A stretch of 64,000 bases of DNA. Source: Prototheca cutis. Its lineage: Eukaryota; Chlorophyta; Trebouxiophyceae; Chlorellales; Chlorellaceae. How positions within the stretch are numbered: position 1 is the first letter of the stretch; each line of letters opens with the position of its first letter. The notes under the pieces are model-generated. The model did no database searches, was not told where the DNA came from, and saw nothing but the letters and a program-made list of their open reading frames with translations. This document shows positions 1,726 to 57,500 of the stretch, piece after piece. The position numbers were made by a program, and so were the translations under genes. The stretch spans positions 1,117,825-1,181,824 of the forward strand of contig BCIH01000004.1 in assembly GCA_002897115.2 (NCBI GenBank), written 5' to 3'.

Positions 1726-3403
1726 CTAGTGACTTGCCAAGAAATGCTCTGCCTCCAATGCCGCCATGCAGCCTGTGGGACGGTGGAAACATGGGGAACG
1801 GGGGGGTGAGTCTGAGGTGCATCGCACATCCAGACCTGGTACATGCAAGGCCGGGTTCTTCAAAATGTCACCCCACTTTCTGGTGGGTTGATCGGCCTCA
1901 GCCCCTCAGCTTGCTCCTGTCATCCTGGGGAAAAGCAACACACGGGAACACACCTGTCCCTGCGGCCGTGATGGCCTGGCGCCACTTCTTGTCCTGGACG
2001 TCGCCAGCGGCAAACACACCCTCCACCGATGTGGTGGTGCTGCTGGGCTTGGTAACAATGTAGCCATCGGAGTCCAGCTCCAGCTGCGTGAGGAGAGTGT
2101 GGTTCGCTTCATAGGAAATTGCCCTTTTCTGTAAAATAATAGTATCAACATCAGAATTCCCGGAGACTGTACTTTCCACGGAAGCACTACACCAAACAGA
2201 AGGAGGACAGACCTGGCCGTCGAGGAACTTGCTGGCGGGGTCGTGGCCGATGGCAAAGAAGAGGCCGGCGACTGGGACATCGGTGATCTCGCCCGTCTTG
2301 ACGTTTTTTACCTTGAGCCCGGCCAGCAGACCCTTGTCGTTGCCATAGGCCTCGACGACCACAGAGTCGTAAAGCACCTCGATCTTGGGGTTGTCCAGCG
2401 CGCGCTTTTGCATGATCTTGGACGCGCGGAACTCGTCGCGGCGGTGGATGATGTAAACCTTGCTCCCAAACTTGGTCAGGAAGTTGGCCTCCTCCATGGC
2501 CGAGTCGCCGCCGCCGATGACGGCGATGGGCGCGTTGCGGAACATGGGCGCCGCGCCGTCGCACACCGCGCAGGCGGAGATTCCCTTCATCCAAAACCCA
2601 TCCTTGCCCTCGCCAGACCCCGGAAACTCGAGCCGCCGTGCAACCGCACCCGTGGACACAATCACAGTGTCGGCCAGCACCTCGCGCTCGTCAGACCAGA
2701 TGTGGAAGGGGCGCTTGGACAGGTCAATCTGCAAGAAACAAGGGTTGCGGTGCGTGTTGCGTGAAGACCAAGCGATGCCTGGTAAATCCCTGACGATGTT
2801 CCGGCAAGCCAATTCCCTGCAGCTCCCTGACAAATCAGTTCCACAGGTGAACAAAAATTTGCCTGCTGGGGCTCCTTCCCATCAACAGGCACTCCTGGCT
2901 CACAAGCCCCCTCCCCCAAAAACCACCCACACTCTTTACCTTGTTGACCGTCTCAGAGAAGATCTTGGTCCCGAAACGCTCCGACTGGGCCCTGAACCGG
3001 TCCGCGATCTCGGGGCCCATGATGCCCTCGGGAAAGCCAGGAAAGTTCTCGAGGTCCGTGGTAGTTGTCAGCTGGCCGCCGGGGGCCACGCCATTTGCCA
3101 TCCAGCCCTCGAACATGACGGGCTGCAGTTCTGCAAGCAACACAGGGAAACACCAGACACGTCATGAGAGTCTGGTTCAGCGTGTCCTGAGGGCTCTTCG
3201 GCCCGCTGATTGCAGGGCCAAATTTGGAACAGGATCACCCAAGAGCGAGCGCGCGCCCCGCGCGCCACAGCGTGGACATCCCCCATCCAGACTCGTATCG
3301 CGTACAACGTACCTGCACGAGCAGCATAAATGGCGGCTGTGTGCCCCGCGGGCCCACTGCCGATGATGGCCACCTTGGTCCTCAGAGGTTGCGTCCCTGT
3401 CAT
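1726..3403 (-). CDS. NTR: NADPH-dependent thioredoxin reductase (NTRA/B type)
   Basis: Flavoenzyme that passes electrons from NADPH through FAD and a CxxC pair to thioredoxin. Exons on the minus strand are 3313-3403, 2940-3130, 2213-2728, 1954-2083 and 1726-1772, joining in frame to 324 residues. Visible parts are the FAD dinucleotide motif GSGPAG near residues 15-20, the redox pair CAVC at about 147-150, the NADPH motif GGGDSA near 166-171, HRRDEFRAS, and the C-terminal [11 protein letters not shown] and [15 protein letters not shown]. There is no C-terminal thioredoxin domain, so this is the cytosolic/mitochondrial plant type rather than plastid NTRC. The start is ATG at 3403. The frame is open upstream only from a TTG, so an organelle presequence would need another 5' exon. 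It is divergent from the GT61 gene. Confidence 0.95.
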
Positions 3404-9932: not shown

Positions 9933-11123
9933 ATGACACAGCACGATTCACCTGGATTTTTCTCCAGACACAACAATATATATTTGTATGTTCCAAATCT
10001 AATAGGTAGGCTGGCAGGACTGGTCTCACGGGGCACTAGAGAGGGCCCATGATTGACTCGTGGGACGTGGGGCGGGCTGCTCCTGTGGGTGACGGAACTG
10101 GGTGCCCCTGAGGGCCGTGGCAGCCACGGGAACTGGGCTGCTTCTATCTCATTGAAGACAACAGGGATAGAGCACATTTCCCTTACCACCACACAGGCTA
10201 TGGCCGTGTGGCCTTTGCGCTGTACGGCTTTGCCGTAGCGCTGCGGTCGCCGGGCGCGATGATTGGTGCTTATCTGCTGAGCTTTGTGTGCGACGAGTTG
10301 GACGGGCGCATGGCTCGGCTGCTGGGCCAAACCAGCACGCTGGGCCAGGTTCTGGACATGGTGACGGACCGCGTGGCGACGACATGGCTGTTGGCCACGT
10401 TGAGCACGCTGTGGCCCGCCTACCTGCTGCCCTGCCTCCTGTTGATCGGCCTTGACATTGCATCACACTGGTTCCAGATGTACGCCACGCTGGCCGCGGG
10501 AGGGTCCACGCACAAGGATGTGCGCAGCCGCAGCGCCGTTGTCCGGTTCTACTACCGCAGCCGCATCTTCATGGGGTTCTGCTGCGTGTGCTGTGAAGTA
10601 CTCTACCTCGCGCTCTACGCGCTGGCCTGGCCGCAGTACCAGAGCTGGGGGGTACTGCCGCTGCCGAGGGCTGTCAGTGAGCTCCTGGCACAGACAGGTG
10701 AGGGGCGGTTTTGTCTTTTTTCTGGGGGTAATTGGGTTTGTCGGATGGCCTGGCTGGTTTCCACGGTGGTTGATCCAGGGGAATACAGGCATCTGATCGG
10801 CAGACCCGCCAACGGCTGCTGTACCAAATACCCTGGCCCCTTCTCAAGGCATTCAATACTTTGACTGGAATCCAGCAATCACATGGATGGCTCTGTCTTC
10901 GTGATCCCAGGCACGTGTATGCTTGCCAAGAATGAGTCCCGTACGATCCCAAAATCACTCCACCGCAGGGCTCTTGCCAGACGCTCCCGTCGGCTTGCCC
11001 GCCGCGGCTGTCATCGCTTTCGCTGCATTGCCGGGGACGATCATCAAGCAGTTTGTGAACGTGATCCAGCTCCGCAATGCCATGGACACACTGGTGCAGC
11101 TCGACCTCGACCGCCGCAGCTAA
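9933..11123 (+). CDS. PIS1: CDP-diacylglycerol-inositol 3-phosphatidyltransferase (PI synthase)
   Basis: Integral membrane enzyme of the ER that joins CDP-diacylglycerol and myo-inositol to make phosphatidylinositol. Exons 9933-10005, 10197-10697 and 10969-11123 join to 242 residues, the usual size for this family. The first exon ends in VPNLIG, completed across the splice to GYGRV, as in eukaryotic PI synthases. The CDP-alcohol phosphotransferase motif is complete and correctly spaced: D57, D60-G61, A64-R65, G74, D78 and D82, with D82 the usual catalytic base. Several hydrophobic helices follow (LLATLSTLWPAYLLPCLLL and others), and the tail is basic and hydrophilic. ATG 9933 is the only in-frame start before this motif. 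Confidence 0.95.
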
Positions 11124-30900: not shown

Positions 30901-32456
30901 GGGCGACGGCATTGCTGGTCAGGCAGAGGCTGTCCCGTCGGCCGTCCCATCGACCGATGGAACATGTGTCGCTGTCAGAGACGATGCCATGGCTGCAGTC
31001 TTGCAGCCCGACTTGCCACAGCGGCCGCTGGTGGAAAGCGCTTCGGCCCCCATGCTGTCTGAAAACACCAATACAAAGGGAGAAGCCCGCACAGCAGATC
31101 GGGATGGAAGGCCGCCGGCCGCCCCGCCTCCCCTTTCTATTCCCTCTGACGAGACGGGCACCGTCCGTCGGACGGTCGGCGGCTCCCCCGCCCAGGGCAA
31201 GGCGCGAGCGCCGCCGCCACCGGCGCCCCCTCCGCCGCCGCCTCCAAGGCAGCATCAGCGCAGTACCAGCGCCCCCGACTTGGGTGGTGTGAGCGAGGCA
31301 GCTCCCTGCAGCCCGCCGTCTGGCGAACCTGCGGACACCAGTCGGGCTGCGCAGGCAGACTCTGCGCCGGCGACACCTGTACGGCCGGCGAGAGCGGCAC
31401 AGACTTCGCCTGGCAAGACCCCGCCTCCACCACCGCCACCATTGCCGCCGGGAAGGAAAGAAGGGATCAGTCCAAGTGCCACAACAGGGCGGTCATCACC
31501 GGCAGCCCCGCCACCGGCGCCGCCTCCTCCACCAGGAAAGAAGTCGACCCCCGGCAAGGGAACTCCAAGCACACCCCCGCCGCCGCCACCCCTCCCGCCA
31601 GGGAAACGGGCCAGTCCAGGCAAGGGACCGCCCGGCACGCCCCCACCGCCACCTCCTCCACCTCCAGGAAAGAAAGGAAGCCCCGGAGCAAAGAGTGGCG
31701 CACCGGCAGGCACCCCGCCGCCGCCGCCGCTTCCGCCAAAGAAGCCGGGCACTCCGACCCCGCCCGCGCTGCCGCGGCGCAAGGGTTCCGGTGGGGCCCC
31801 GCCGCCTCCACCCCCTACTCCTGCTGCTGCAGGGAAGAAACTGCGAACACTGTACTGGGATGCGGTGCGGTGCCAGCCTGGCACGGTGTGGGAGGAGATT
31901 CGCGATGCCGGGGACAGCAGCCTGTGCCCGGCATCCATGACTGTGCTGGAACAGCTGTTCGAGGTCGGTACCTCTTGGAGGTTTCTTTTCCTGGAGTTGC
32001 TCAGCTTTGGGGTTGGGCGGGGATTTGGATGCTCACGAAAGGGAATGTTGTCATGTTCTGCCATGCCTGCAGGGTGTTGGTCCTTGCATGGCCCAGGCGG
32101 GAATCAGGCATGGGAGGGAGACCCAGAGCTTGACGACGGCCTGCACATGATGAGCAGCGCTCTCCAAACAGTGAGTCACACACACATGAACATCTTCACC
32201 CTACTTGGCATCTTTCTGCTCTGCAGGCCAAGCAGAGTACGGCCGCTGCCAGGCACCGGCCAGGATCCAAAGAGCCTGGCCGGGGTGGGCGGCCGCCGGG
32301 CACAATGGTCAAAGTGATCCCATTGACTCGTGCCAACAACGTCTCCATCATGTTGACCCAGGTGTGGCTGGGTGGGGCTGCGGGTGCGCGGGTGTGTGGG
32401 GTTGCTTTGGTTCTTGAGCGTTGGTGGTACCATCGGCGACGAGAAATTCACATGCG

Positions 32457-32530
<74 letters not shown>

Positions 32531-34253
32531 ACCCCGAAAAAAAGTCAAAAAAATATCAGTCCNNNNNNNNNNNNNNNNNNNNNNNNNNNNNNNNNNNNNN
32601 NNNNNNNNNNNNNNNNNNNNNNNNNNNNNNNNNNNNNNNNNNNNNNNNNNNNNNNNNNNNNNGGCCGGGGTGGGCGGCCGCCGGGCACAATGGTCAAAGT
32701 GATCCCATTGACTCGTGCCAACAACGTCTCCATCATGTTGACCCAGGTGTGGCTGGGGGGGGCCGCGGGTCCGCGGGCGTGTGGGGTTGCTTTGGTGCTT
32801 GAACGTGGATGGTACGATCCCCGCAGCCACACATGCCTGGACCCCCCCCCCCCCCCCCCCCGCGGATCCCTCCACCACCCCGCGGCCCCGTCAAAAAAAT
32901 ATCAGTCCACCAATCACATGCAGTTTGCGGACTTTAAGAGCTACGAGGGCATCCGGGACGCTTTGCTGGCCGGGTCACCACAGCTGGGCCTGGATCATTT
33001 AAGCCTGCTGATGCAGATTGTCCCCGGCGAGGACGAGGCCAAGGCGCTGCTGGGCTACGCCGGGTCTCCCGAGGAGCTATCGCCGCCAGAGCGCTTCATG
33101 CGGCTGATGGCAGGCGTGCCGCGAGCCGTGGCCAAGGTCGGGGCGCTCATGTTCCGCCTGCAGTTTACGGCGCTGTGCGGCGATGCGGCTGAAGGCATGG
33201 CCGCGGTGCGGGAAGCTGGCGGACAGGTGCTCGCCAGTGCCAGGCTGAAAAAGGCGAGCGACTGCGCTGTTTTTTTAAGGGGGGGGTTTTGGGGGGGGGT
33301 AAACGATGGACCTGGGCAGTCCAAAATCGCTCCACACAAATGGCACCATTCACATTCCTGCTTTCTTGCCACACACAGGTGCTGGCGCATGTGCTGGCGG
33401 CAGGCAACGCACTGAATGCCGGGACGGCTCGTGGCAATGCTGCCGCGCTGAAGCTGGATTCCCTGCTCAAACTGCAAGACACCAAGGTGTCTGCAGTGGC
33501 GGTTGGTCCCGCGGCGCGGAACGCTGCAGCCGGTGCCAGTGCTGCAGGCGCTGCAGCTCCCGCCGATGGTGTCGTCTCGGACGGCTCTGTGAGGTCCGGC
33601 CCGCCGCCCGCGGTGCTGAGGCGGCTGCGGAGTCTTTTGGACTTTATTGCCTGGGACGTTCATGAGGCCGAACCAGAGGTCACCGCCCGCGCGGCCGCAC
33701 AGTACTTGGGGGCGGAGATGCCGGCACTTGCCGGCGCGGTCCGACGAATGCAGTCAGGTCTGAAAGTCTTTTGTTGCTTTCGTTGTATGCGTGCACGTAG
33801 GTTCTCACAGACATGGGAATCCAAGCTCACCGTCTGAAGCCAGAACCCCCCCCCCCCCAACACACACACACACACGCACACCGTGCAGATGTGCAAGATG
33901 CGCTACGGGCACTGCAGGCTGGGCTGGCTTCCACCCGCCGCGAATACGAGGCCGAGCTGCGGTGCTCTGGGGATGCCGACGGCGGTGGCCCCATGGGGCC
34001 CAAGACTGCGGCGCCCCAGCCGGCCGCGGATGCACAGTTTGCAAGAGTGCTCGAGGCGTTCCTGGAGGAAGCCGGCGAAAAGCTGGCGGAGCTGCGCCAG
34101 CTCAGCGTGACGACCGAGCAGGAGACCAAGGCGCTGCTGGGCTGGCTGGGGGCGCAACCCAGCCAGGACGCGGCCACGGTGTACGAGCTGGTCCACCGCT
34201 TTGCCGTGCAATTTGATGCCACCTTTGCCGCCGCACACAGGGCAGCACAATGA
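27906..34253 (+). CDS. Formin with N-terminal PTEN-like domain (plant class II-like)
   Basis: Actin nucleator and elongator. Twelve exons join to about 1,305 residues: 27906-28014, 28115-28169, 28264-28442, 28607-28731, 28878-29646, 29870-29953, 30065-30194, 30706-31963, 32227-32361, 32924-33253, 33379-33757, 33889-34253. Residues 1 to about 190 resemble the PTEN phosphatase-like part of plant class II formins (YLTDRVLACVY, VMEFPLNFWERPPG), followed by a C2-like region. The P-loop that should read HCxxGxxR is HARTCSDT (about 159-166), so no phosphatase activity is expected. FH1 spans about 650-859, with many poly-Pro blocks separated by GKK. FH2 runs from GKKLRTLYWD (about 860) to the end, including IPLTRANNVSIMLTQFADF and HVLAAGNALNAG. 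Intron 33254-33378 is GC-AG. The exact end of exon 6 is uncertain (29953 keeps the frame). A gap at 32563 interrupts one intron. Confidence 0.85.
32457..32530. repeat. Poly-C tract of 74 bases
   Basis: Unbroken C run inside the formin intron that begins at 32362. The equivalent position in the second copy of this intron (32842-32861) has only 20 C, so the tract length is either polymorphic or misassembled. Confidence 0.9.
32563..32662. other. Scaffold gap, exactly 100 N, with duplicated flanks
   Basis: The sequence left of the gap ends in an A-rich stretch and ATATCAGTCC that reappears at 32889-32908, close to the next exon. The sequence right of the gap restarts at a point equal to 32278. 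The two contig ends therefore overlap and the gap is not a real distance. Confidence 0.9.
32663..32909 (+). repeat. Second copy of formin exon 9 (3' part) and its intron
   Basis: 32663-32746 repeats 32278-32361, the 3' part of the FH2 exon encoding MVKVIPLTRANNV, and the following intron is similar but not identical (for example a GTGGGGCTGCGGGTGCG versus GGGGGGCCGCGGGTCCG difference). The copy begins inside the exon without an acceptor, so it cannot be an extra exon. Most likely it is the other allele of the same locus. Confidence 0.85.
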
Positions 34254-41596: not shown

Positions 41597-42742
41597 ATGG
41601 CACAACGACGCCGGCTTCGTGGCAGCATCGCGCTGATCTTGTCGTGCACGATGGTGAGCTTGACCGTCCCTTGGGCTGCATATTGTTTGATATTGTAGTG
41701 TTCTAGCTTCAGGCATTGCGGTGCGCAGCTGGTTTGATCGCCGCCATGGTCCCCGCTACCGATCATACAGGTGCTCGCGGTGACTGCCCAGTGTCGACAG
41801 CTGTCCAGGACGCCGTCAGGTGCGCAATGTGCTGAAGCCAGCGCCGGCGCATAGCATGTTTCTGGACCACCACCTGCACCGATGACATTCGCAGCAACCA
41901 TTGTGCCTTTTTGTTTATATAACATGCATCAATGACCAGAAACATAATTTTGCCTCCTGAATACCTGTGCTGCAGACACAGTGGAGACGGCCACTGACGC
42001 CACCGAATTGACGGTGGAGCGCTCTGGTGCAGCACTAAGTGGACGGCGTTCCCTCGCGGCGGCGGACAAGAGCGCCTTTGATGTGGCGTCCACTCTTTCA
42101 AGCAGGATCCTGAAGCAGACAGCAACGGCTGCTTCCAAGAAGAGCAGTCTCGCCTCAACCAAATTGAAGAAGTCCCCCCCGCCACCCAAGAAGCGGTTCC
42201 CTCCCCCGCCCAAGAAAAAGTCTTCTCCCCCCCCACCCAAGAAGCGGGCCCCTCCCCCGCCCAAGAAAAAGTCTTCTCCCCCGCCACCCAAGAAGCGGCC
42301 CCCTCCCCCGCCCGAGAAATCTCCCAAGTTGATTGAGGGAAGGAAGCTCTTAACTCCTCCAGTTGGACTGAATGCTGTCCTCCCACCACCAAAGCCTTCT
42401 CCCCCACCCCCAAAGCGCTCTCCACCCCCACCAAAGCGCTCTCCACCTCCACACCCCACCAGCTCACCTCCTCCCCCACCACCTAGCCCATCCCCATCTC
42501 CGGCTCCATCGCCGCCACCATCGACCGTCTCCACGTCGTCCACCAAAGTATTGACGGAGGCCCTTCCTTCGCCGCCTGCCGTTACAGGCGTCGTTGGTGC
42601 ACAGTCCAGCAGCCCCGAGGGTCGTGCTCCTCTTGTGACGACCGTGCCTGCCCCCTTCACTGGGAGCAAGACCGTCCCCGTGCCGGGCGGGAGGACGCCT
42701 GTGCTGAACCCTATCCCCAACCCTCCCACATCGGAGGCCTGA
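41597..42742 (+). CDS. Secreted Pro/Lys-rich extensin-like protein
   Basis: Probable cell-wall or extracellular-matrix structural protein. Exons 41597-41653, 41713-41770 and 41976-42742 join in frame to 293 residues. The first two exons encode a basic N-terminus and hydrophobic core (MAQRRRLRGSIALILSC, then MALRCAAGLIAAMV), fitting a signal peptide or signal anchor split by an intron. A Ser/Thr/Ala-rich region follows, then 42174-42310 encodes repeats of about 14 residues alternating KKSSPPPP and KKRAPPPP. A second block has SPPPPKR and PPPPPPSPSPSPAP. Runs of Ser-Pro(n) are substrates for prolyl hydroxylation and arabinosylation in green-lineage hydroxyproline-rich glycoproteins. The Lys/Arg pairs inside each repeat make the protein strongly basic. 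Confidence 0.7.
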
Positions 42743-43612: not shown

Positions 43613-46600
43613 ATGAAGCACAGGGAGAGGAGTCATGTGCCCATCATCGTGGTGGCGGGCACGGCCACTGGCGTCGGGAAAACCTCCGTCGCCATTGGGC
43701 TCATGGCCGCGCTGAGGTGCGTGGGCTCCGGGGTTGCGGCGCCGCAGGGCTGGGCTGCCTCTGCTCGTTCAGCGCCGTGGGACGCGTTGCCCTGCCCTGT
43801 CGGCACCTCATGATTGGTGTGCTTGCTGATGGCCTGCCATGAGCCCGCTGACCGACTCTGCAGGGCAAGGGGCCTGGAGGTGCAGGCCTTCAAGGTCGGC
43901 CCAGGTGTGCCAGACGGTGGTAGGCGTTGGTTTGCTGGATGTTGGCCGGGGCAGTGCCGGTGTGGTGCCTCGCGTCGTTGCAGGGGACGCGTGTTTGGTG
44001 CACATGGGCAGTTTGGTGTTTGGGGGGGAGATATTCCCGGCGCCAGGCACCTGCGCTGTTGCGGCAATCGGCTTGTTGCATGGACGAGGGGGCCGTCGTT
44101 TGCTTGCAGTTCATCGCCCATGTCCCACAGGGTGGTGGGAGAGGTTGTTCCTTGATTGGTTCCCTCACAGAACCAGCGCTGATGCACCCTTGCTCCCACA
44201 AACCTGCAGATTTCCTGGACCCGATGTACCATGAGCTGGCAGTGGGCCGGCCGTCCATCAACCTGGACGGTTGGCTGATGGGGCGGCGCGCGGTGCTGTC
44301 GGCGGTGCGTCGCGGCTCGCGCGGCGCCGATGTGGCGGTGGTGGAGGGTGTCATGGGGTTGTTTGACGGCCTGGACGGCTCGGGGGACGCCGGGTCCACC
44401 GCCGAAGTGGCCAAGTGGCTTGACGCGCCCGTGCTCCTGGTGGCCGACGCCGGCTCAGCCGCTCGATCGCTGGCGGCCACGCTCCGGGGCTTTCGCGACT
44501 TTGACCCAGAGCTGCACGTGGCGGGGGCCGTGCTCAACCGCGTGGGCGGCGCCGCACACGCCGCGTGCCTGACCGCCGCGCTGCAGAGCGCGGGGCTTGC
44601 TGCGCTGGGCCCGCTGGGCTGCCTGCCTGTCGACGGGCGTGTCGCGCTGACCGAGCGCCACCTGGGCCTCCGTGTTCCGGCGGAGGCGCCGGCGGACTCT
44701 GAGCGGGCCATTGCCGCGTTGGGCAACCTCGTAGCCCAGCACGTCGATATCGATGCAGTGATGGCGTTGGCGCGCACCGCGGGAGGGGGTGGCTCACGCC
44801 GTGGTGTTGAAGGTGGTGGTGCTGCTCTTGGCAATGATGATAACCATGACGATGAGTACGCCCGCCGGCAGACGACGACGGGAAATGTTCCAGGTTCGCC
44901 GGCGGTGTCATCGGCGTCTGTGGGTTCCTTGAACGACGATGATCCCTCCAGCTGCTCCGAGGGGTCGGGGCCCGGGGCTGCACCTCGAGCAACCCTCGCC
45001 ACCGTCGCCGGCTACTACCCGGGCGCTGACGACGGCGACGAGCCACGTGTGCGGATCGCGGTTGCCCACGACGAAGCGTTTTGCTTCTATTACCACGACA
45101 ATCTGGCCAGGTTGGAGGCCGCGGGGGCGGAACTGGTTTTCTTCTCGGCGCTCTACGACCCTCTGCCGGGTGGCGTCGCTGGCGTCTACCTGGGCGGCGG
45201 ATACCCGGAGCTGTAAGCCGTCCCTTTTTTGGGAGCCGGGTTTGGCTCGGATGGGGGTTGAGCAGTTGGGGGAAAGGAGAGATACGCAGGGTACATGATA
45301 GCTGGGCCCACTGCCAGCACAGCCCCAATCCGTCACGCCCTTCACAGCGAGCGAGGTCAAAACCAATCGGTGCAGGCATGCGCAGGTGCTGTCTCGGAAT
45401 GTGGCGCTTCGGGCGGGGCTGAGGGCGTTTGCCGAGGCGGGCGGCGTGGTGTATGCGGAGTGCGGCGGTCTGATCCTGCTGGGCCGGGCAGTGCAGACCG
45501 AGGAAGGCGGCGCAGACGTGCCCATGGTAGGCGTGTTTGACTTCAAGACCGTGCTATCCCGGCGACTGACGATGGGTTACGTCGAGCTGGAGACGACGCG
45601 CGAGTGCACAGTGTTTGCGCCGGGGCGCGCCGCGCGGGGCCACGTGTTTCACTGCACCTCCATCGTGGAAGAGCACATTCTCGCTGCTGTCGCGCAGCAG
45701 TCGCATGACGGCGATCATGGCATCATGGCACGGAGCGGTGGGGCGGGCATGGGAGACCACTTCAGTGCCACAGGCTATGGTGGCGCCGGCTACGGCCCCG
45801 CCGCCACGGAACTCAAAGGTTCCATGACGGCTGGCTCGTCCTATGCCGACGACAACACCACCGCCACCAGCACCTTGACGGCAACACAGCAGTGGACAAC
45901 AGCATATCGAGCACAGCCTCAGTTTGCCGGCGCAGCGGCCGTGCCAGAGGGTTTCACACGCGGGCGCACCCTCGCATCGTACATCCACGTACACTTTGCT
46001 TCCTGCCCCGCTCTGGCGGCGGATTTGGTGGCCAGCTGCCGGAGCGTGGACGTCGCTGCGGCGCATGGCGCCACGCTCGCGGCCACTCGCGCGGCGCTCG
46101 CCGCGCAGTGCGCGCAGCGTGGGCTCGCTCCCCCCCTGCACTCGCGGCCGGGCCTGGGTCCTCGGTCGGCGCTGGACTTGCTGGCACTGGAGGAGCCGCG
46201 GCGGGGGCCAGGGACGCACGACGTCGCGGCTGCCGGTTATTTACCTCCAGGTGACACACCTGCGCCCGCGCCGGCGATGCCAGAGCCGGCGGGACGGTCG
46301 TACACTGCCGGGTTTGACCCCGGCGCAACGAACGCGCTGGGGCCGCGTCGAGCCAGTGCGGTGACGTTTGACCTTGTCGCTGCGGCCCGCAATGGCAGCG
46401 CCGCCTCGTTGGGGGGATCGCTGATGCTGCCCTCGCCGCGCAAACACAGCGACGACGGCGGCGCCGCTGCCTCTGGACCTGCTGTTGCAATTTTCGGACC
46501 GGGAATGCAGCCCAAGCGAGGCGGCGGTGGCGGCGATTCATCGGTGCCGCTGGCGGTCTCAGGCCGCCCTGGGGCCGCGGCGATGAGCCGCAGTGTGTCA

Positions 46601-48720
46601 TACGCTGCGCTTTCTTCCTCGACGGCCACGGCTGTGCAGATTGGGGCTCTCGGGTCCCGATCTCCCAGCCAGCCGGCGCTGCTGCACCTCGCGCCAAGCG
46701 GTGGCGTTGCAGCCTGGCCCGGTGGTGCCGCGGCCATCGCCATGGGCCATCAACGTCGCGGCAGCCTGGAGACGGCGCAACCTCCCAGCGCACGCGCTCC
46801 GTCGCTGGCAGACGCGCCGTCGCACGGCGGCAGTGGCGCGCTGGTGTGGCAAGGCAATGACCGTATCGTCAGCTTGGGGCCCGGCGCCAGCGAGGTGCTG
46901 TGGGCGCTGGGACTCAAGGCCCGTGTCGTGGCAGTCTCCGACGCGACGGATGAGCCGGCCGATGCGTCAGGCCTGCCGCGCGCTGCGCGCAGGCTGAGCA
47001 CGGTCTCGGTCGCTGGAGGAGTCGGTGGGGTGGGCGGGACGGCGATCGCCGGGCCATCCGGCGGTCCTGCCCCCCACCAGTCGTCGTTGCCCTTTGGCCA
47101 GCATCATGCCCACGGGTACCATCACCATCAGCAGCAACTCAACGGAGCGATGAGCGCAGAGCGGTCGTGGCAATCGCCGCCGCAGTACGGCGGCAACGGG
47201 CCGGGTTCGGCCGGTCGCGGCGTCGGCAATACGCGGCACGGGCAACGTCACGGTCACCGCCACCCGCAGCAGCACAGTCCGCTGCATCGGCTGGCAGAGG
47301 CCGGCGCGTCAGTAGTGGCCTGGCTCGCCGGCGGCGGGCAGCCCGGTCAGATGCCCTGGGGCCATCGCAGTGGATCAGCCACACACGGCTGGGTGGGCTC
47401 GAATTTTGTGACGCCCGCGAGCAGCCCCGCCCGGGGTGGTGCTGGCGGTAGTGCGCAACACCCAACAGCTGCAGCACCTGTGACTCTGTACGTCGATGAG
47501 CGGCTGCTTGCCCGGGAACGGCCGGGTCTTGTGGTCATGGAAGAAAGCGCAGACACCGCCGCGGCGTTGACCGACGCGTTGAGTGCCATCGGTCTTAGAG
47601 GGTCCACGCCCATCTTCGTGCTTCGGATAGGGGGCTTGAGTGCATTCCTCGAAAGCATCCTAGAGGTGAGGAGAGAGGGGGATTTTTATGTGGGGGGCGT
47701 GCGGACCGGAGATTATCAAATCTGGTGGGGCCCGGATCACGATGCACAGCCGGCCGAGGGAATCCGTATGCTTTTGACCGGTGCTGGCATTTTCAGGCAA
47801 TCCTTACGCAATCTCCTCACCCCATCTTTCCAATGCCACTATTCTCTGGTGTAGCTGGGCGAGGCGGCGCACGTCAGTACCGAGGCTGCAGCACTTGTGG
47901 AAGCCCTGCGGTCCCGGCTTCGAACGGCCGCCGCGCTGGGGTCGGCGGGGCCCGTGGCGGGCCTGCCCTGCGCCCCGCCCCCCGCTGTCCTCATTCTCGA
48001 GTCGGCTCTTGCCGGCACCCCAGGCACGTTATTGGTGATGCTGAGCTGTTTGCTGTTTTGATCTGTTTCTCTTGTCGACAGGTTGACGAGTGGGGGGGAG
48101 GATCCATGTGATGTGTGGTGTGATGTGGAGCATGATCAGCGATTCTGGCTCCTGCGGTGACTTCCAGCGCTCTCTCTCTCCCTCCCTCTCTCTGTCTGTG
48201 AACAACCAGAAATCCGGTCATAATAAGCAACAGCACCGAACACACACAAATTTCTGCAGCCCAGGGGCCATGGGTGGAGGAGATGGTGAGGCTGGCCGGC
48301 GGTCGCAGCGCCCTAGCGTGGCCAGGGGAGCGTTCGCCTGTGACCCCGGCGCGGCGGGCGCGGTCCTCGTCTGCCACGGCAGCGTTGTTGGCGTCGGCCT
48401 CCCCTGCAGTGCTGGTGGTGTTGCATGGGCCCGGCTCGGCGGGCCTGCAAGCAGCGCTGGGGGCGCTGGCCGACGCGGCCGCCGCGGGCGGCGGCTGGTG
48501 GCAGTGCCCCGCGGTCCAGGCGGCCGAGGTGTACGTTGTCCCCGCACCTTTCTTCACGCGCCTGGGCCCGCGGCTGGTCGAAGGTGTGGAAATGCTGGCA
48601 CGGGTGCTCCGCCGCGCAGCGGCGCCGGCACTGGGCCGGCCCATTCTCAAGCTGGCGCTGCGGCCGGGGCAGCGCTGCCGGCCGCCCCTGCTGCCAAACT
48701 ACTTTTTGCCTTGGAGCTGA
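43613..48720 (+). CDS. Cobyrinate a,c-diamide synthase (CobB/CbiA) fused to a BtuF-like domain
   Basis: Exons 43613-43716, 43864-43904, 44210-45212, 45376-47665, 47855-48034 and 48265-48720 keep frame through 1,357 residues. The N-terminal half is a CobB/CbiA protein, which in bacteria uses ATP and glutamine to amidate the a and c carboxylates of the corrin ring. It has the P-loop GTATGVGKTS at about 20-29, FKVGPDFLDP, VVEGVMGLFDG, GGYPELHA, and the glutamine amidotransferase nucleophile in YAECGG (C412). Further on are the partner histidines in GHVFHC and the family's C-terminal ASYIHVHFASCPALA. After a linker of about 300 residues comes a periplasmic-binding-protein-like domain of BtuF type: RIVSLGPGASEVLWALGL from about 879, an insert of roughly 170 residues, VTLYVDERLLARERP from about 1085, then WVEEMVRLAGG and RLGPRLVEGVEMLAR near the end. 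No signal or transit peptide precedes the P-loop. The last intron boundaries (48034/48265) are the weakest splice. Confidence 0.85.
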
Positions 48721-54540: not shown

Positions 54541-57500
54541 CTAGAGCACGGTGCTCCTGCGGGGCGTCAGCCGCTCCTGGAATGAATCTTGCCGCAGGAG
54601 CACGACTTCCGTGGCTCCAAGCGAGCCGGACGACAGGGTCGCGGCGCCGAGGGCCTGCGGCCCTGCGCCGTTTGCCTGGCGTCGCAGGTACTCTTCCCCA
54701 GTGGAAAACACCCACCGCGCGCCGCCCATGCACTCCAGAACATGCGTGTGCCACTGTACCAGCTGCGGCCGGTGCCCTGTCATAGTTTGGGCGTGTGCGT
54801 GGAGAGAGTTGGATTGATGCCTGAGCGACAGGGCATCGGCGCTGCTGCAGCACTGGTTTGCAGGTGCTTGGGCCGCTCAAAGCGGGCCCCATGCCCCCAC
54901 GGTCCACAGAGACTGCTATCATTTGGCGCTGCCTGTGAATGACCCAGTCAAACAGGCAATGAACCCCTCCCAGATCAGCAATCCTCCCGTCGCCCACCGA
55001 CGGAGACGCAGGCCGTGCCCCGGCGCCGCAGCTCGGCATACATCGCAGCCTCGGTTCCGGGGTCCAAACCCGACGTCGACTCGTCCAAGAAGGCTAGCGT
55101 GGGGTTCTGGTGGAACAGGCGTGCAAACGCTACACGCTGCTGCTCTCCCGTCGACAGTTCCAGTGCCCAATCTGCATCAGCATTCAGTCCTCCAACACTG
55201 CTCCCAAATGGAAAGGGGGGGGGGGTGTCTATCCTACGGCTGGTTGCAAGACAGACAGAGAAGATGCCAACGCGACGAGCGAGGCGCAGACGGAAAGCAA
55301 AGCTCGTGAGGGCCCAGAGCATGCTTGATGAAGGCAGCAGTTGGCACACAACTTTCCAGGTTCAACTAAAAAGCATCACAATCCCTGAGCCCACTGACCG
55401 TTCAATGAGGTCTGGCAGTCGTGCGGCGGCCAGGCAGGCTGCCAACTCCGCGTCCGTTCCGGGCTGCCGGGTGTGAGGGAAGCACAGCTGGTCTCCCAGC
55501 GTGCCCAGGCACATGAACGGTTTCTGGGGCAGGAAGAACAGCGTGCTGGCGGGTGGCGTGATGATGCTTCCACTGCCATGTGTCCAGAGACCTTTGGGGT
55601 GGGGTGTCGGTTGGGAACAGGCTTCCTGCGGGTGACGATGATTACTGGCCTGCTCCAAAACACACACACAGCACAACACCCCCACACCCACTGGATCCCC
55701 CCCCACACCCCCACACACAAACAAGCAAACAAGCAGCACACCTGCAATGCAGCGCAGCAGGCTGGACTTGCCGCAACCAGAGGGCCCCACGATGAGCAGC
55801 GACTGGCCCGCCCGCAGCGTGAGGCTGAGGTCCGTCGCCAGCAGCGGCCCACCCCGCGGCGCGGCAAAGCAGAGTTCCGTAAGGTCGAGCATCGTGTCCG
55901 GGCTTGATGATGTCCGGCGCACAATCCCCCCCCCGGCCTTGGCTGGGGACTGGTGCGCTGAAGAGCTGCCATGCCTCAACGCCTTGAGCAGTTCGTCCAG
56001 ACGCTCGGTCTGCGCTGCCAGCGCCGACAGCTCAGCCAGATTGGTGACTAAATAGGAGATCGCGGCCTCGATGCGCTGAAAGGTAAAGGCCACCTGCGAG
56101 ATCTCGCCAAATCGCACCTCGCCCGCAAAGTACCGCGGCGCCATGAGCAACGATGGCACCTGTGTGTTGGCATGCCCGTTATCTCGTTGGAGAGCGGGTC
56201 CTGGCCACGGCTCTGCTCGAGATGCCGCGGGAAGGTGCTGGTACCCCTCAGACCTTGTCAATCACCAACACCTACACAAGCAAAGTAAGAGCAGCACCCA
56301 CACCCATGCCCACATGCACACGCATACCACGAGGGTAAGGTTGGAGTAGACATTGAGCCAGACCCCCAGGCCAGCTTCTAGAGCAAGACGCCGGAGCCCC
56401 GCGGCGACCGCAAGACCCAGCCGGTTCCTGCTCTCCGTGGCCTCACGCTCCTCGCCTTTAAAAAAGGCTACGCTCTCTGCCGCTTCACGCAGGTGGATGA
56501 GCTGGTGCCGGAGGTCTGCCTCGCGCCGCAGCACCGCGTACGTCCTTGAGATGAGTGGCCGGCCGAAGATGAACGCCGACACCAGCGTCCCCGCCGTGGC
56601 ATAGAGCAGCAGGAACCCAAACACGTGCGGTGCGATGCTGAGGAGCAGCCCCGAAAACGTGACCAGGAAGAAGAGCTTGCGGAGCATGCCCACGGCCAGC
56701 AGCACGCTGCTCGCCACAAACGAGCGCACGTCGTCGCAGATGCGCTGGTCGGGGTTGTCGATGGCCCGGGGCACGTCCAGCTGCAGCAGGTAGTATGCGC
56801 GGTCCGCATAGTATGCCGTCAGCAACTGCTGCGTCAGCCATGCGCGCCACTTGATCATCATAAAGCCGTCGAGCCAGTCGGTCAGGGCAAACAGCGGCGT
56901 TGCCACGGCTGCCACGACGCTGAATTTCCTGATGGCGCCATAAAAGTCGGCTGTGGTTGTGTAGGATTATGAAGTCGTTATCGTCAGGCTGTGGCTTCCG
57001 ACAACAATGGGCCGAGGGTCGGAACAGCAGCGCTGCCATGCGTGTCTGCGCAGCATGGCTGCGCTGCTGCGGCGGTCTTGTGCCCGCAGCGCCGCCGGCA
57101 CACGTTGTGATGCTGCGTAAGAGCAAAACCCCCTACATCCCATGCCACACATACATTGCTGCTTTTCAGCCAGGGCCGAGGACAGATCATTCTGGACGTA
57201 GCTGAGCTTGAGCAGGAGCAGGCTGGTGGAGATCGACAGCACGAGGGAAGCCAAGGCCAGTTTCCATGCAATCAGCCAATCCGAGCCTGCAGCATTGGGA
57301 CGGTTGGCAGTTGGTGATGGCATTCTGATGAGTTCTTGGAGCAATGAACAGATCGGAATGCCCGCGCGTCCCCATCCACCCCGCAACTGCCTGGTAACCA
57401 CCCCACCATGCACCAGGACCCTCCTCACCAGTGAACCACAGGCGCGCCAAGCGGCACCACACCGCCAGCAGTTTCCATAGTCCCGGCTTCGATGGCTGGT

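What the first reader, a model, noticed from the sequence alone, without database searches (positions are those of the whole stretch)
43613..48720. Nuclear-encoded CobB/CbiA fused to a BtuF-like cobalamin-binding-type domain
Seen directly: one reading frame runs through six exons, with a full CobB/CbiA set of motifs (P-loop, EGVMGLFDG, GGYPEL, catalytic YAECGG, FH pair) followed by BtuF-type motifs (RIVSLGPGASE..., PRLVEGVEMLA). Known: in bacteria CobB/CbiA amidates corrin intermediates (its relative CfbB amidates Ni-sirohydrochlorin), BtuF binds B12 for import, and eukaryotic algae are not known to make B12 from scratch. Inference: the protein could sense, modify or salvage a corrinoid or another cyclic tetrapyrrole, with binding and amidation in one chain. 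It has five introns, so it is not a bacterial contaminant. No targeting peptide is visible, so the binding domain would be cytosolic, which is odd for a BtuF-like fold.
Basis: partly seen in the sequence, partly recalled or inferred. Interest (0 to 1): 0.88.

Follow-up and report, generated by a model that had tools for sequence, protein, structure and literature searches.

The report
Eukaryotic B12-enzyme and binding-domain fusion
A green alga that does not seem able to build vitamin B12 carries, in one gene, an enzyme of the bacterial B12 pathway joined to a cobalamin/heme-binding-type domain, and the same fused protein turns up in other algae, a liverwort, water moulds and dinoflagellates with no known job.

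Summary
Six exons (43613-48720, +, GT-AG introns) give one 1357-aa frame. The front half is CobB/CbiA with intact motifs, above NCBIfam's CobB cut-off and below CfbB's. Residues 879-1357 match a profile of 19 bacterial-type BtuF-like proteins to the last residue (107 bits; best of 500 shuffles 3.0). A homologue's model has the BtuF/heme-binder fold. The domain is not BtuF proper, and most bacterial relatives look leaderless, so a cytosolic place is not odd.

The gene is not unique: 79 other proteins have both domains, in chlorophytes, streptophytes, oomycetes, a bolidophyte and dinoflagellates, the last three with kelch and DUF5522 added. Eukaryotic CobB lies on one side of one branch (100/99). 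In bacteria 12 of 80 loci hold a corrinoid-type gene (5 by a methylase alone; control 1 of 34, p=0.055).

The genome has METH, METE and adenosyltransferase matches, but CbiC, CobS and a second GATase_3 were not found. Most likely the protein amidates and holds an imported corrinoid or another tetrapyrrole; the substrate is unknown. This alga's binding half has lost four conserved cysteines. I found no description of the fusion in print.

The parts
43613..43716 (+). exon 1 (aa 1-35), start Met and P-loop
43864..43904 (+). exon 2 (aa 35-49)
44210..45212 (+). exon 3 (aa 49-383), rest of the CbiA ATPase domain and start of the amidotransferase domain
45376..47665 (+). exon 4 (aa 383-1146), amidotransferase domain, linker, first part of the binding domain
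47855..48034 (+). exon 5 (aa 1147-1206)
   Evidence: 3' end chosen among several frame-keeping splice pairs
48265..48720 (+). exon 6 (aa 1207-1357 and stop)
43619..46063 (+). CobB/CbiA-like region, aa 3-612 (introns within)
   Evidence: own profile of 60 stand-alone CobB: aa 3-612, 490 bits; NCBIfam CobB over cut-off
43658..43687 (+). P-loop GTATGVGKTS, aa 16-25
44344..44370 (+). EGVMGLFDG, aa 94-102
45455..45469 (+). AECGG with the likely glutaminase Cys 412
   Evidence: role by analogy
45980..45997 (+). YIHVHF with the likely catalytic His, aa 585-590
   Evidence: role by analogy
46064..46858 (+). linker, aa 613-877
   Evidence: between the two profile matches
46859..48717 (+). BtuF-like (class III substrate-binding-protein-type) domain, aa 878-1357, with an unmatched stretch at aa 916-1085 and introns within
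   Evidence: fold from the homologue model

Best explanation
This is one nuclear gene of a green alga encoding a two-part, probably cytosolic protein of an old eukaryotic family (identity close to certain). Shown by sequence: a CobB/CbiA amidotransferase with its motifs intact, a long linker, and a domain homologous to mostly leaderless bacterial BtuF-like proteins. Inferred: the front half uses ATP and glutamine to turn acetate side chains of a ring-shaped tetrapyrrole into amides (the a and c positions in CobB), and the back half holds the corrinoid or related ligand so it can be passed to or from the active site. The substrate is most likely a corrinoid taken up from outside, because the genome holds B12-using and B12-handling gene families but none of the ring-building or loop-building ones that I sought. 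In this alga and its close kin the binding half is diverged and may bind poorly or have another role.
Against: No substrate evidence. No second GATase_3 and no CobS were found, so amidating a simple precursor would lead nowhere. 10 of 80 fusions lack the ECGG motif: in six the Cys place reads Gly and in one Ser, among them Elliptochloris and Picochlorum; in three I saw no such motif. These may use ammonia, be inactive or be bad models. The corrinoid neighbourhood is weak as statistics: 12 of 80 loci vs 1 of 34 control stretches, one-sided p 0.055; 5 of the 12 rest on a TP-methylase match alone, and without them 7 of 80 gives p 0.25. Other neighbours are commoner: a squalene/phytoene synthase in 21 loci, a flavin reductase in 22. 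Only 2 of 80 loci have cobB near. The fold matches heme and siderophore binders as well as BtuF. The window has none of the four shared cysteines. Marchantia paleacea has the fusion, while METH is reported absent from liverworts (PMC11439496, passages).
Confidence: 0.47

Rival explanations
1. The front half amidates a non-corrin tetrapyrrole that the alga makes itself, such as sirohydrochlorin or siroheme, and the back half binds heme or siroheme. CfbB shows that this enzyme family can change ring.
For: [quoted passage not shown] A full-length TP_methylase match and two partial ones are in the genome, not sub-typed. The fold ranks heme binders as high as BtuF. 17 columns that are conserved in stand-alone CobB are kept by under 60% of the fusions.
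Against: CfbB model far under its cut-off (361 of 560). Where bacterial relatives of the binding half stand near tetrapyrrole genes, those that I could name are corrinoid genes.
Confidence: 0.22
2. The protein is a sensor or scaffold: the binding half and, in stramenopiles and dinoflagellates, the kelch and DUF5522 parts report ligand supply, and amidation is secondary or lost.
For: Kelch and DUF5522 in the oomycete, bolidophyte and dinoflagellate forms. 10 of 80 fusions lack ECGG, with Gly or Ser at the Cys place in seven. RSSxxL-type motif in 8 of 31 green linkers (pattern chosen after seeing the data).
Against: 70 of 80 fusions keep ECGG, and the window keeps 125 of 143 conserved CobB columns.
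Confidence: 0.16
3. In the window's branch the gene is a relic: CobB persists by chance and the binding half is decaying.
For: All four cysteines lost and a long unmatched stretch in the binding half; 114 bits against 422 in Myrmecia, 444 in Trebouxia and 374 in P0009, which lies beside them in the tree.
Against: Binding half alignable to the last residue in the window and found in Auxenochlorella and Prototheca too; 125 of 143 CobB columns kept.
Confidence: 0.12
4. Artefact: contaminant, or two neighbouring genes read as one.
For: No RNA for this gene in hand.
Against: Five introns and one frame; both domains in 79 other proteins, CobB first in 78 of them, the exception being P0059.
Confidence: 0.03

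Closest known systems
CobB/CbiA, cobyrinic (hydrogenobyrinic) acid a,c-diamide synthase
   Same: domains, motifs, NCBIfam score above cut-off
   Different: nuclear, fused, in a genome where CbiC, CobS and a second GATase_3 were not found
CfbB, Ni-sirohydrochlorin a,c-diamide synthase
   Same: same superfamily and chemistry
   Different: 361 bits against a cut-off of 560
BtuF, PhuT, HmuT and other class III substrate-binding proteins
   Same: fold of the C-terminal half (homologue model)
   Different: domain is C-terminal in a chain without a leader; BtuF model far below cut-off; a four-Cys set in most relatives
Unnamed BtuF-like proteins (~325 aa, LTQDxCxxCD), mostly leaderless
   Same: homology along the profile, positions 2-38 and 71-323 of 325
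   Different: stand-alone in bacteria; the four shared cysteines are absent in this alga
Bacterial CobB fusions with other partners (e.g. P0086, P0095, P0101)
   Same: CobB joined to another Pfam domain
   Different: other partners; they lie with the bacterial rows of the tree

Membership tests
CobB/CbiA | CbiA ATPase domain plus GATase_3 domain | tested here: met
   Pfam
CobB/CbiA | score above the curated CobB cut-off | tested here: met
   436.5 bits, cut-off 254; TIGR00379 385.4, cut-off 261.4
CobB/CbiA | Cys in ECGG and the other motifs | tested here: met
   (window; 70 of 80 fusions keep ECGG)
CobB/CbiA | part of a corrin-building pathway in the same genome | tested here: not met
   CbiC 0, CobS 0, PF07685 at one place only; six-frame searches without splicing, so divided genes can be missed
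[quoted passage not shown]
   needs an enzyme assay
CfbB | score above the CfbB cut-off | tested here: not met
   361 of 560
BtuF | score above the BtuF equivalog cut-off | tested here: not met
   10.8 of 234; bacterial relative P0139 29.4
BtuF | class III substrate-binding-protein fold | tested here: met
   for homologue P0013, residues 518-835; the window's own protein was not folded
BtuF | secreted or lipid-anchored, works with BtuCD | tested here: inconclusive
   P-loop at residue 16 and binding domain at the C-terminus speak against it; no targeting program was run and partners were not sought
unnamed BtuF-like subfamily | profile match along the domain | tested here: met
   107 bits, profile positions 2-38 and 71-323 of 325
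unnamed BtuF-like subfamily | four shared cysteines (30, 93, 96, 228 of P0139) | tested here: not met
   all four in 71 of 79 rows from bacterial loci and 53 of 80 fusions; none in the window. The loci were fetched partly with a pattern that holds Cys 93, which favours it
algal CBA1 | homology to CBA1 | not tested
   no CBA1 sequence was fetched

The most novel reading that the evidence does not exclude
Many eukaryotes that import B12 carry a dedicated cytosolic enzyme that re-amidates corrinoids whose a or c side chain is unfinished or hydrolysed: a vitamin B12 repair or completion enzyme with its own corrinoid-holding domain, taken once from bacteria and kept in green plants, stramenopiles and dinoflagellates.
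Probability: 0.2. Interest if true: 0.9.

Novelty: new variant of a known kind. Interest (0 to 1): 0.74.

Why it matters
[quoted passage not shown] A conserved amidotransferase of the B12 pathway, fused to a tetrapyrrole-binding-type domain and present even in a liverwort, points to an unmapped step of corrinoid or tetrapyrrole metabolism that can be tested with one purified protein and a few known substrates. It may also bear on why liverworts keep the adenosyltransferase CblB without METH, which that paper leaves open.

Tried and rejected
Contamination or two genes: rejected on the five introns, the single frame and the fused homologues. CfbB and BtuF membership: rejected on their cut-offs. 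First intron-5 models (acceptor 48260) broke the frame.

Uninformative: PF17653 and MMACHC in the own genome, 0 matches but no control rang; PF01497 in the own genome, 0 matches, although this very gene was not found either. PDB sequence search with the CobB half of P0013: no match. CobB donor: not resolved; no named bacterial group holds the eukaryotic rows.

Trees: which rows count as eukaryotic was set by me. 19 of the 104 rows are unnamed environmental proteins that I labelled by their fused architecture. Roots were not tested, so 'one side of a branch' is a clade only if the root lies outside. The careful CobB tree left out 8 rows (long-branched or odd in make-up) and thinned 22 bacterial rows, 104 to 74; the quick tree with all 104 gave the same split (99). 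The binding-domain tree needs 2 label changes, as three distant paralogues (L004_7119, L038_13844, L035_2440) fall outside; it fits one origin but does not prove it.

P-loop pattern: my strict pattern fits 62 of 80 fusions and misses the window's own GTATGVGKTS; EGxMG fits 63, GPDxxD 71 of 80. A looser P-loop pattern puts it within 30 residues of the start in 49 of 80, later in 9 (Chloropicon 119), unmatched in 22.

Literature, by listing unless said. PMC4057078 (passages): a CobB-like protein in the haptophyte Chrysochromulina brevifilum (the text has 'C. brevifilum'; genus from recall), no fusion in what I read. PMC11439496: abstract, outline, passages, section 9. PMC7242693 and PMC11356416: passages. 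The library lacks most subscription journals and all bioRxiv preprints.

Full report
What is there. One forward-strand gene, 43613-48720, six exons, five GT-AG introns, 1357 residues. The window lies in contig C4 of a 19.9-Mb, 23-contig genome. The best named protein matches are from Auxenochlorella protothecoides and Prototheca wickerhamii, and the CobB region is 67% identical to Auxenochlorella's over 474 columns, so the host is a chlorophyte near them. The front half scores 436.5 bits on NCBIfam's CobB model (cut-off 254) and 361 on CfbB's (cut-off 560). Of 143 columns at least 95% conserved in 116 stand-alone CobB, the window keeps 125. Those 116 are listed hits of a search with a eukaryotic relative, mostly unnamed metagenomic proteins, not a random sample of CobB.

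How widespread. Of 360 proteins examined (359 listed by three searches plus the window), 80 have both domains, CobB first in 79. One of these, P0063, is a metagenomic CobB run into what looks like a signal-peptide BtuF, and it lies with the bacterial rows. The rest I take as eukaryotic by name, or by architecture and tree place. Source names include Auxenochlorella, Prototheca, Nannochloris, Myrmecia, Micractinium, Trebouxia, Elliptochloris, Tetraselmis, Chloropicon, Monoraphidium, Marchantia paleacea, Aphanomyces, Saprolegnia, Triparma, Prorocentrum and Polarella. Chlorokybus, Mesotaenium, Mesostigma, Spirogloea and Picochlorum are my reading of source codes, from recall. The oomycete, bolidophyte and dinoflagellate forms add kelch repeats and DUF5522 after the binding domain; 22 of 80 carry the DUF5522 cysteine motif. 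CobB without the binding domain was listed for Closterium, Chara and a chytrid, Rhizophlyctis; split gene models are possible. The CobB tree puts 48 of 48 rows labelled eukaryotic on one side of a branch (99). The careful tree does so for 43 of 43 with 100/99, in all of 200 bootstrap trees. The binding-domain tree fits one origin but is weaker. Which eukaryotes lack the gene was not surveyed.

Catalysis across the family. 70 of 80 fusions keep ECGG, the window among them; 10 do not. In six of the 10 the Cys place reads Gly and in one Ser; in three I saw no such motif. Salmonella CbiA is recalled to accept free ammonia, so these need not be dead, but it counts against a simple glutamine-dependent enzyme everywhere.

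Bacterial context. Twelve of 80 hold at least one core corrinoid-type gene; in five of these (L009, L010, L015, L017, L025) it is only a TP-methylase match. In L004 it abuts cobB. In L044 the order is cobB, pduO piece, this gene, cobQ. L050 has cobO, cobU, cobT, cobS, pduO, cobQ, a BtuF with a leader and btuC; L048 the same but for cobS; L038 pduO, cobQ, BtuF and btuC; L056 pduO, BtuF and btuC; L039 pduO. CobU, CobT, CobO, Cob_adeno_trans, a GATase_3/CbiA protein and the L004 CobB were checked by Pfam; CobS, BluB, BtuC and the leaders were named by eye. Having a secreted and a leaderless form in one gene row suggests a cytosolic corrinoid-handling role. Control: 34 stretches of 16 kb, spaced through six of the genomes and not matched by taxon, 1 with such a gene; one-sided Fisher p 0.055, and 0.25 without the five methylase-only loci. 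So the association is suggestive, carried by the Nitrospirota and L004 gene rows, not proven. Other neighbours are commoner: a squalene/phytoene synthase in 21 loci, a flavin reductase in 22. Of 24 bacterial genomes picked from the 80, 17 have CobB above cut-off and 12 have CbiC; completeness is unknown.

Host context. METH (PF02965), METE (PF01717) and an adenosyltransferase family (PF01923) are matched. CbiC and CobS are not found, and PF07685 is matched only here. The searches do not splice. So the alga looks like a facultative B12 user that does not make corrins, with the CobB step standing alone.

Mechanism. Shown: an amidotransferase with intact motifs and a homologous binding-type domain in one chain. 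Inferred: ATP- and glutamine-dependent amidation of ring acetates, with the second domain holding substrate or product. Without CobQ-type and loop-building genes, a product on the way to cobalamin is a dead end. I therefore favour repair or completion of imported corrinoids, or an as yet unknown amidated tetrapyrrole. For this alga the loss of the cysteines leaves open whether the binding half still binds.

Known or new. Each half belongs to a known superfamily. The fusion, its breadth and its bacterial neighbours I did not find described in ten searches of a library that lacks most subscription journals and all bioRxiv preprints. The nearest is one CobB-like haptophyte protein (PMC4057078, passages). 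I file it as a new variant of a known kind.

Noticed in passing
window 55362-56966 (-): Two adjoining frames of an ABC transporter (ABC_membrane_2, ABC_tran), 6.6 kb downstream. Best PDB sequence match 6tqe (an ABC transporter ATP-binding protein/permease; recalled as Rv1819c, a B12 transporter), then ABC transporter D member 1 and the lysosomal cobalamin transporter ABCD4. Whether the neighbourhood is conserved was not tested.
   Followed up: partly
window 46064-46858 (linker), and linkers of homologues: Motif RS[SA][PNLSED][DEQ][LF] in 8 of 31 green linkers, the window's RSALDL among them; shuffles expect 0.09. The pattern was chosen after looking; it may be a phosphorylation or docking site.
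   Followed up: partly
P0017, P0024, P0027, P0028, P0030, P0032, P0040: Fusions with Gly or Ser in place of the ECGG cysteine: ammonia-dependent, inactive or misread forms.
   Followed up: no
P0063: A metagenomic bacterial-type CobB run into what looks like a signal-peptide BtuF in one frame: an independent fusion or a lost stop.
   Followed up: no
L040, L042, L043 and others; L005, L010, L020 and others: The binding protein lies near a squalene/phytoene synthase in 21 loci (Nitrospira among them) and near a flavin reductase in 22 (Chloroflexota among them): roles outside B12 are possible.
   Followed up: no
L055 5741-6439 and 6 other loci: A diphthamide-synthase-like gene (PF01902, checked for L055) beside the binding protein in 7 loci.
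   Followed up: no
P0029, P0036, P0038, P0045, P0050 and others: Kelch repeats and DUF5522 (motif CCGxxCRHCPxGH) follow CobB and the binding domain; no paper in the library holds the word DUF5522.
   Followed up: partly
window 41948-42742 (+): Open frame rich in SPPPPKK-like repeats just upstream, like a hydroxyproline-rich cell-wall protein (by eye).
   Followed up: no
window 1898-2881 (-), 10112-10864 (+), 32357-33415 (+): Frames matching a Pyr_redox_2 oxidoreductase, a CDP-alcohol phosphatidyltransferase and a formin FH2 domain.
   Followed up: no
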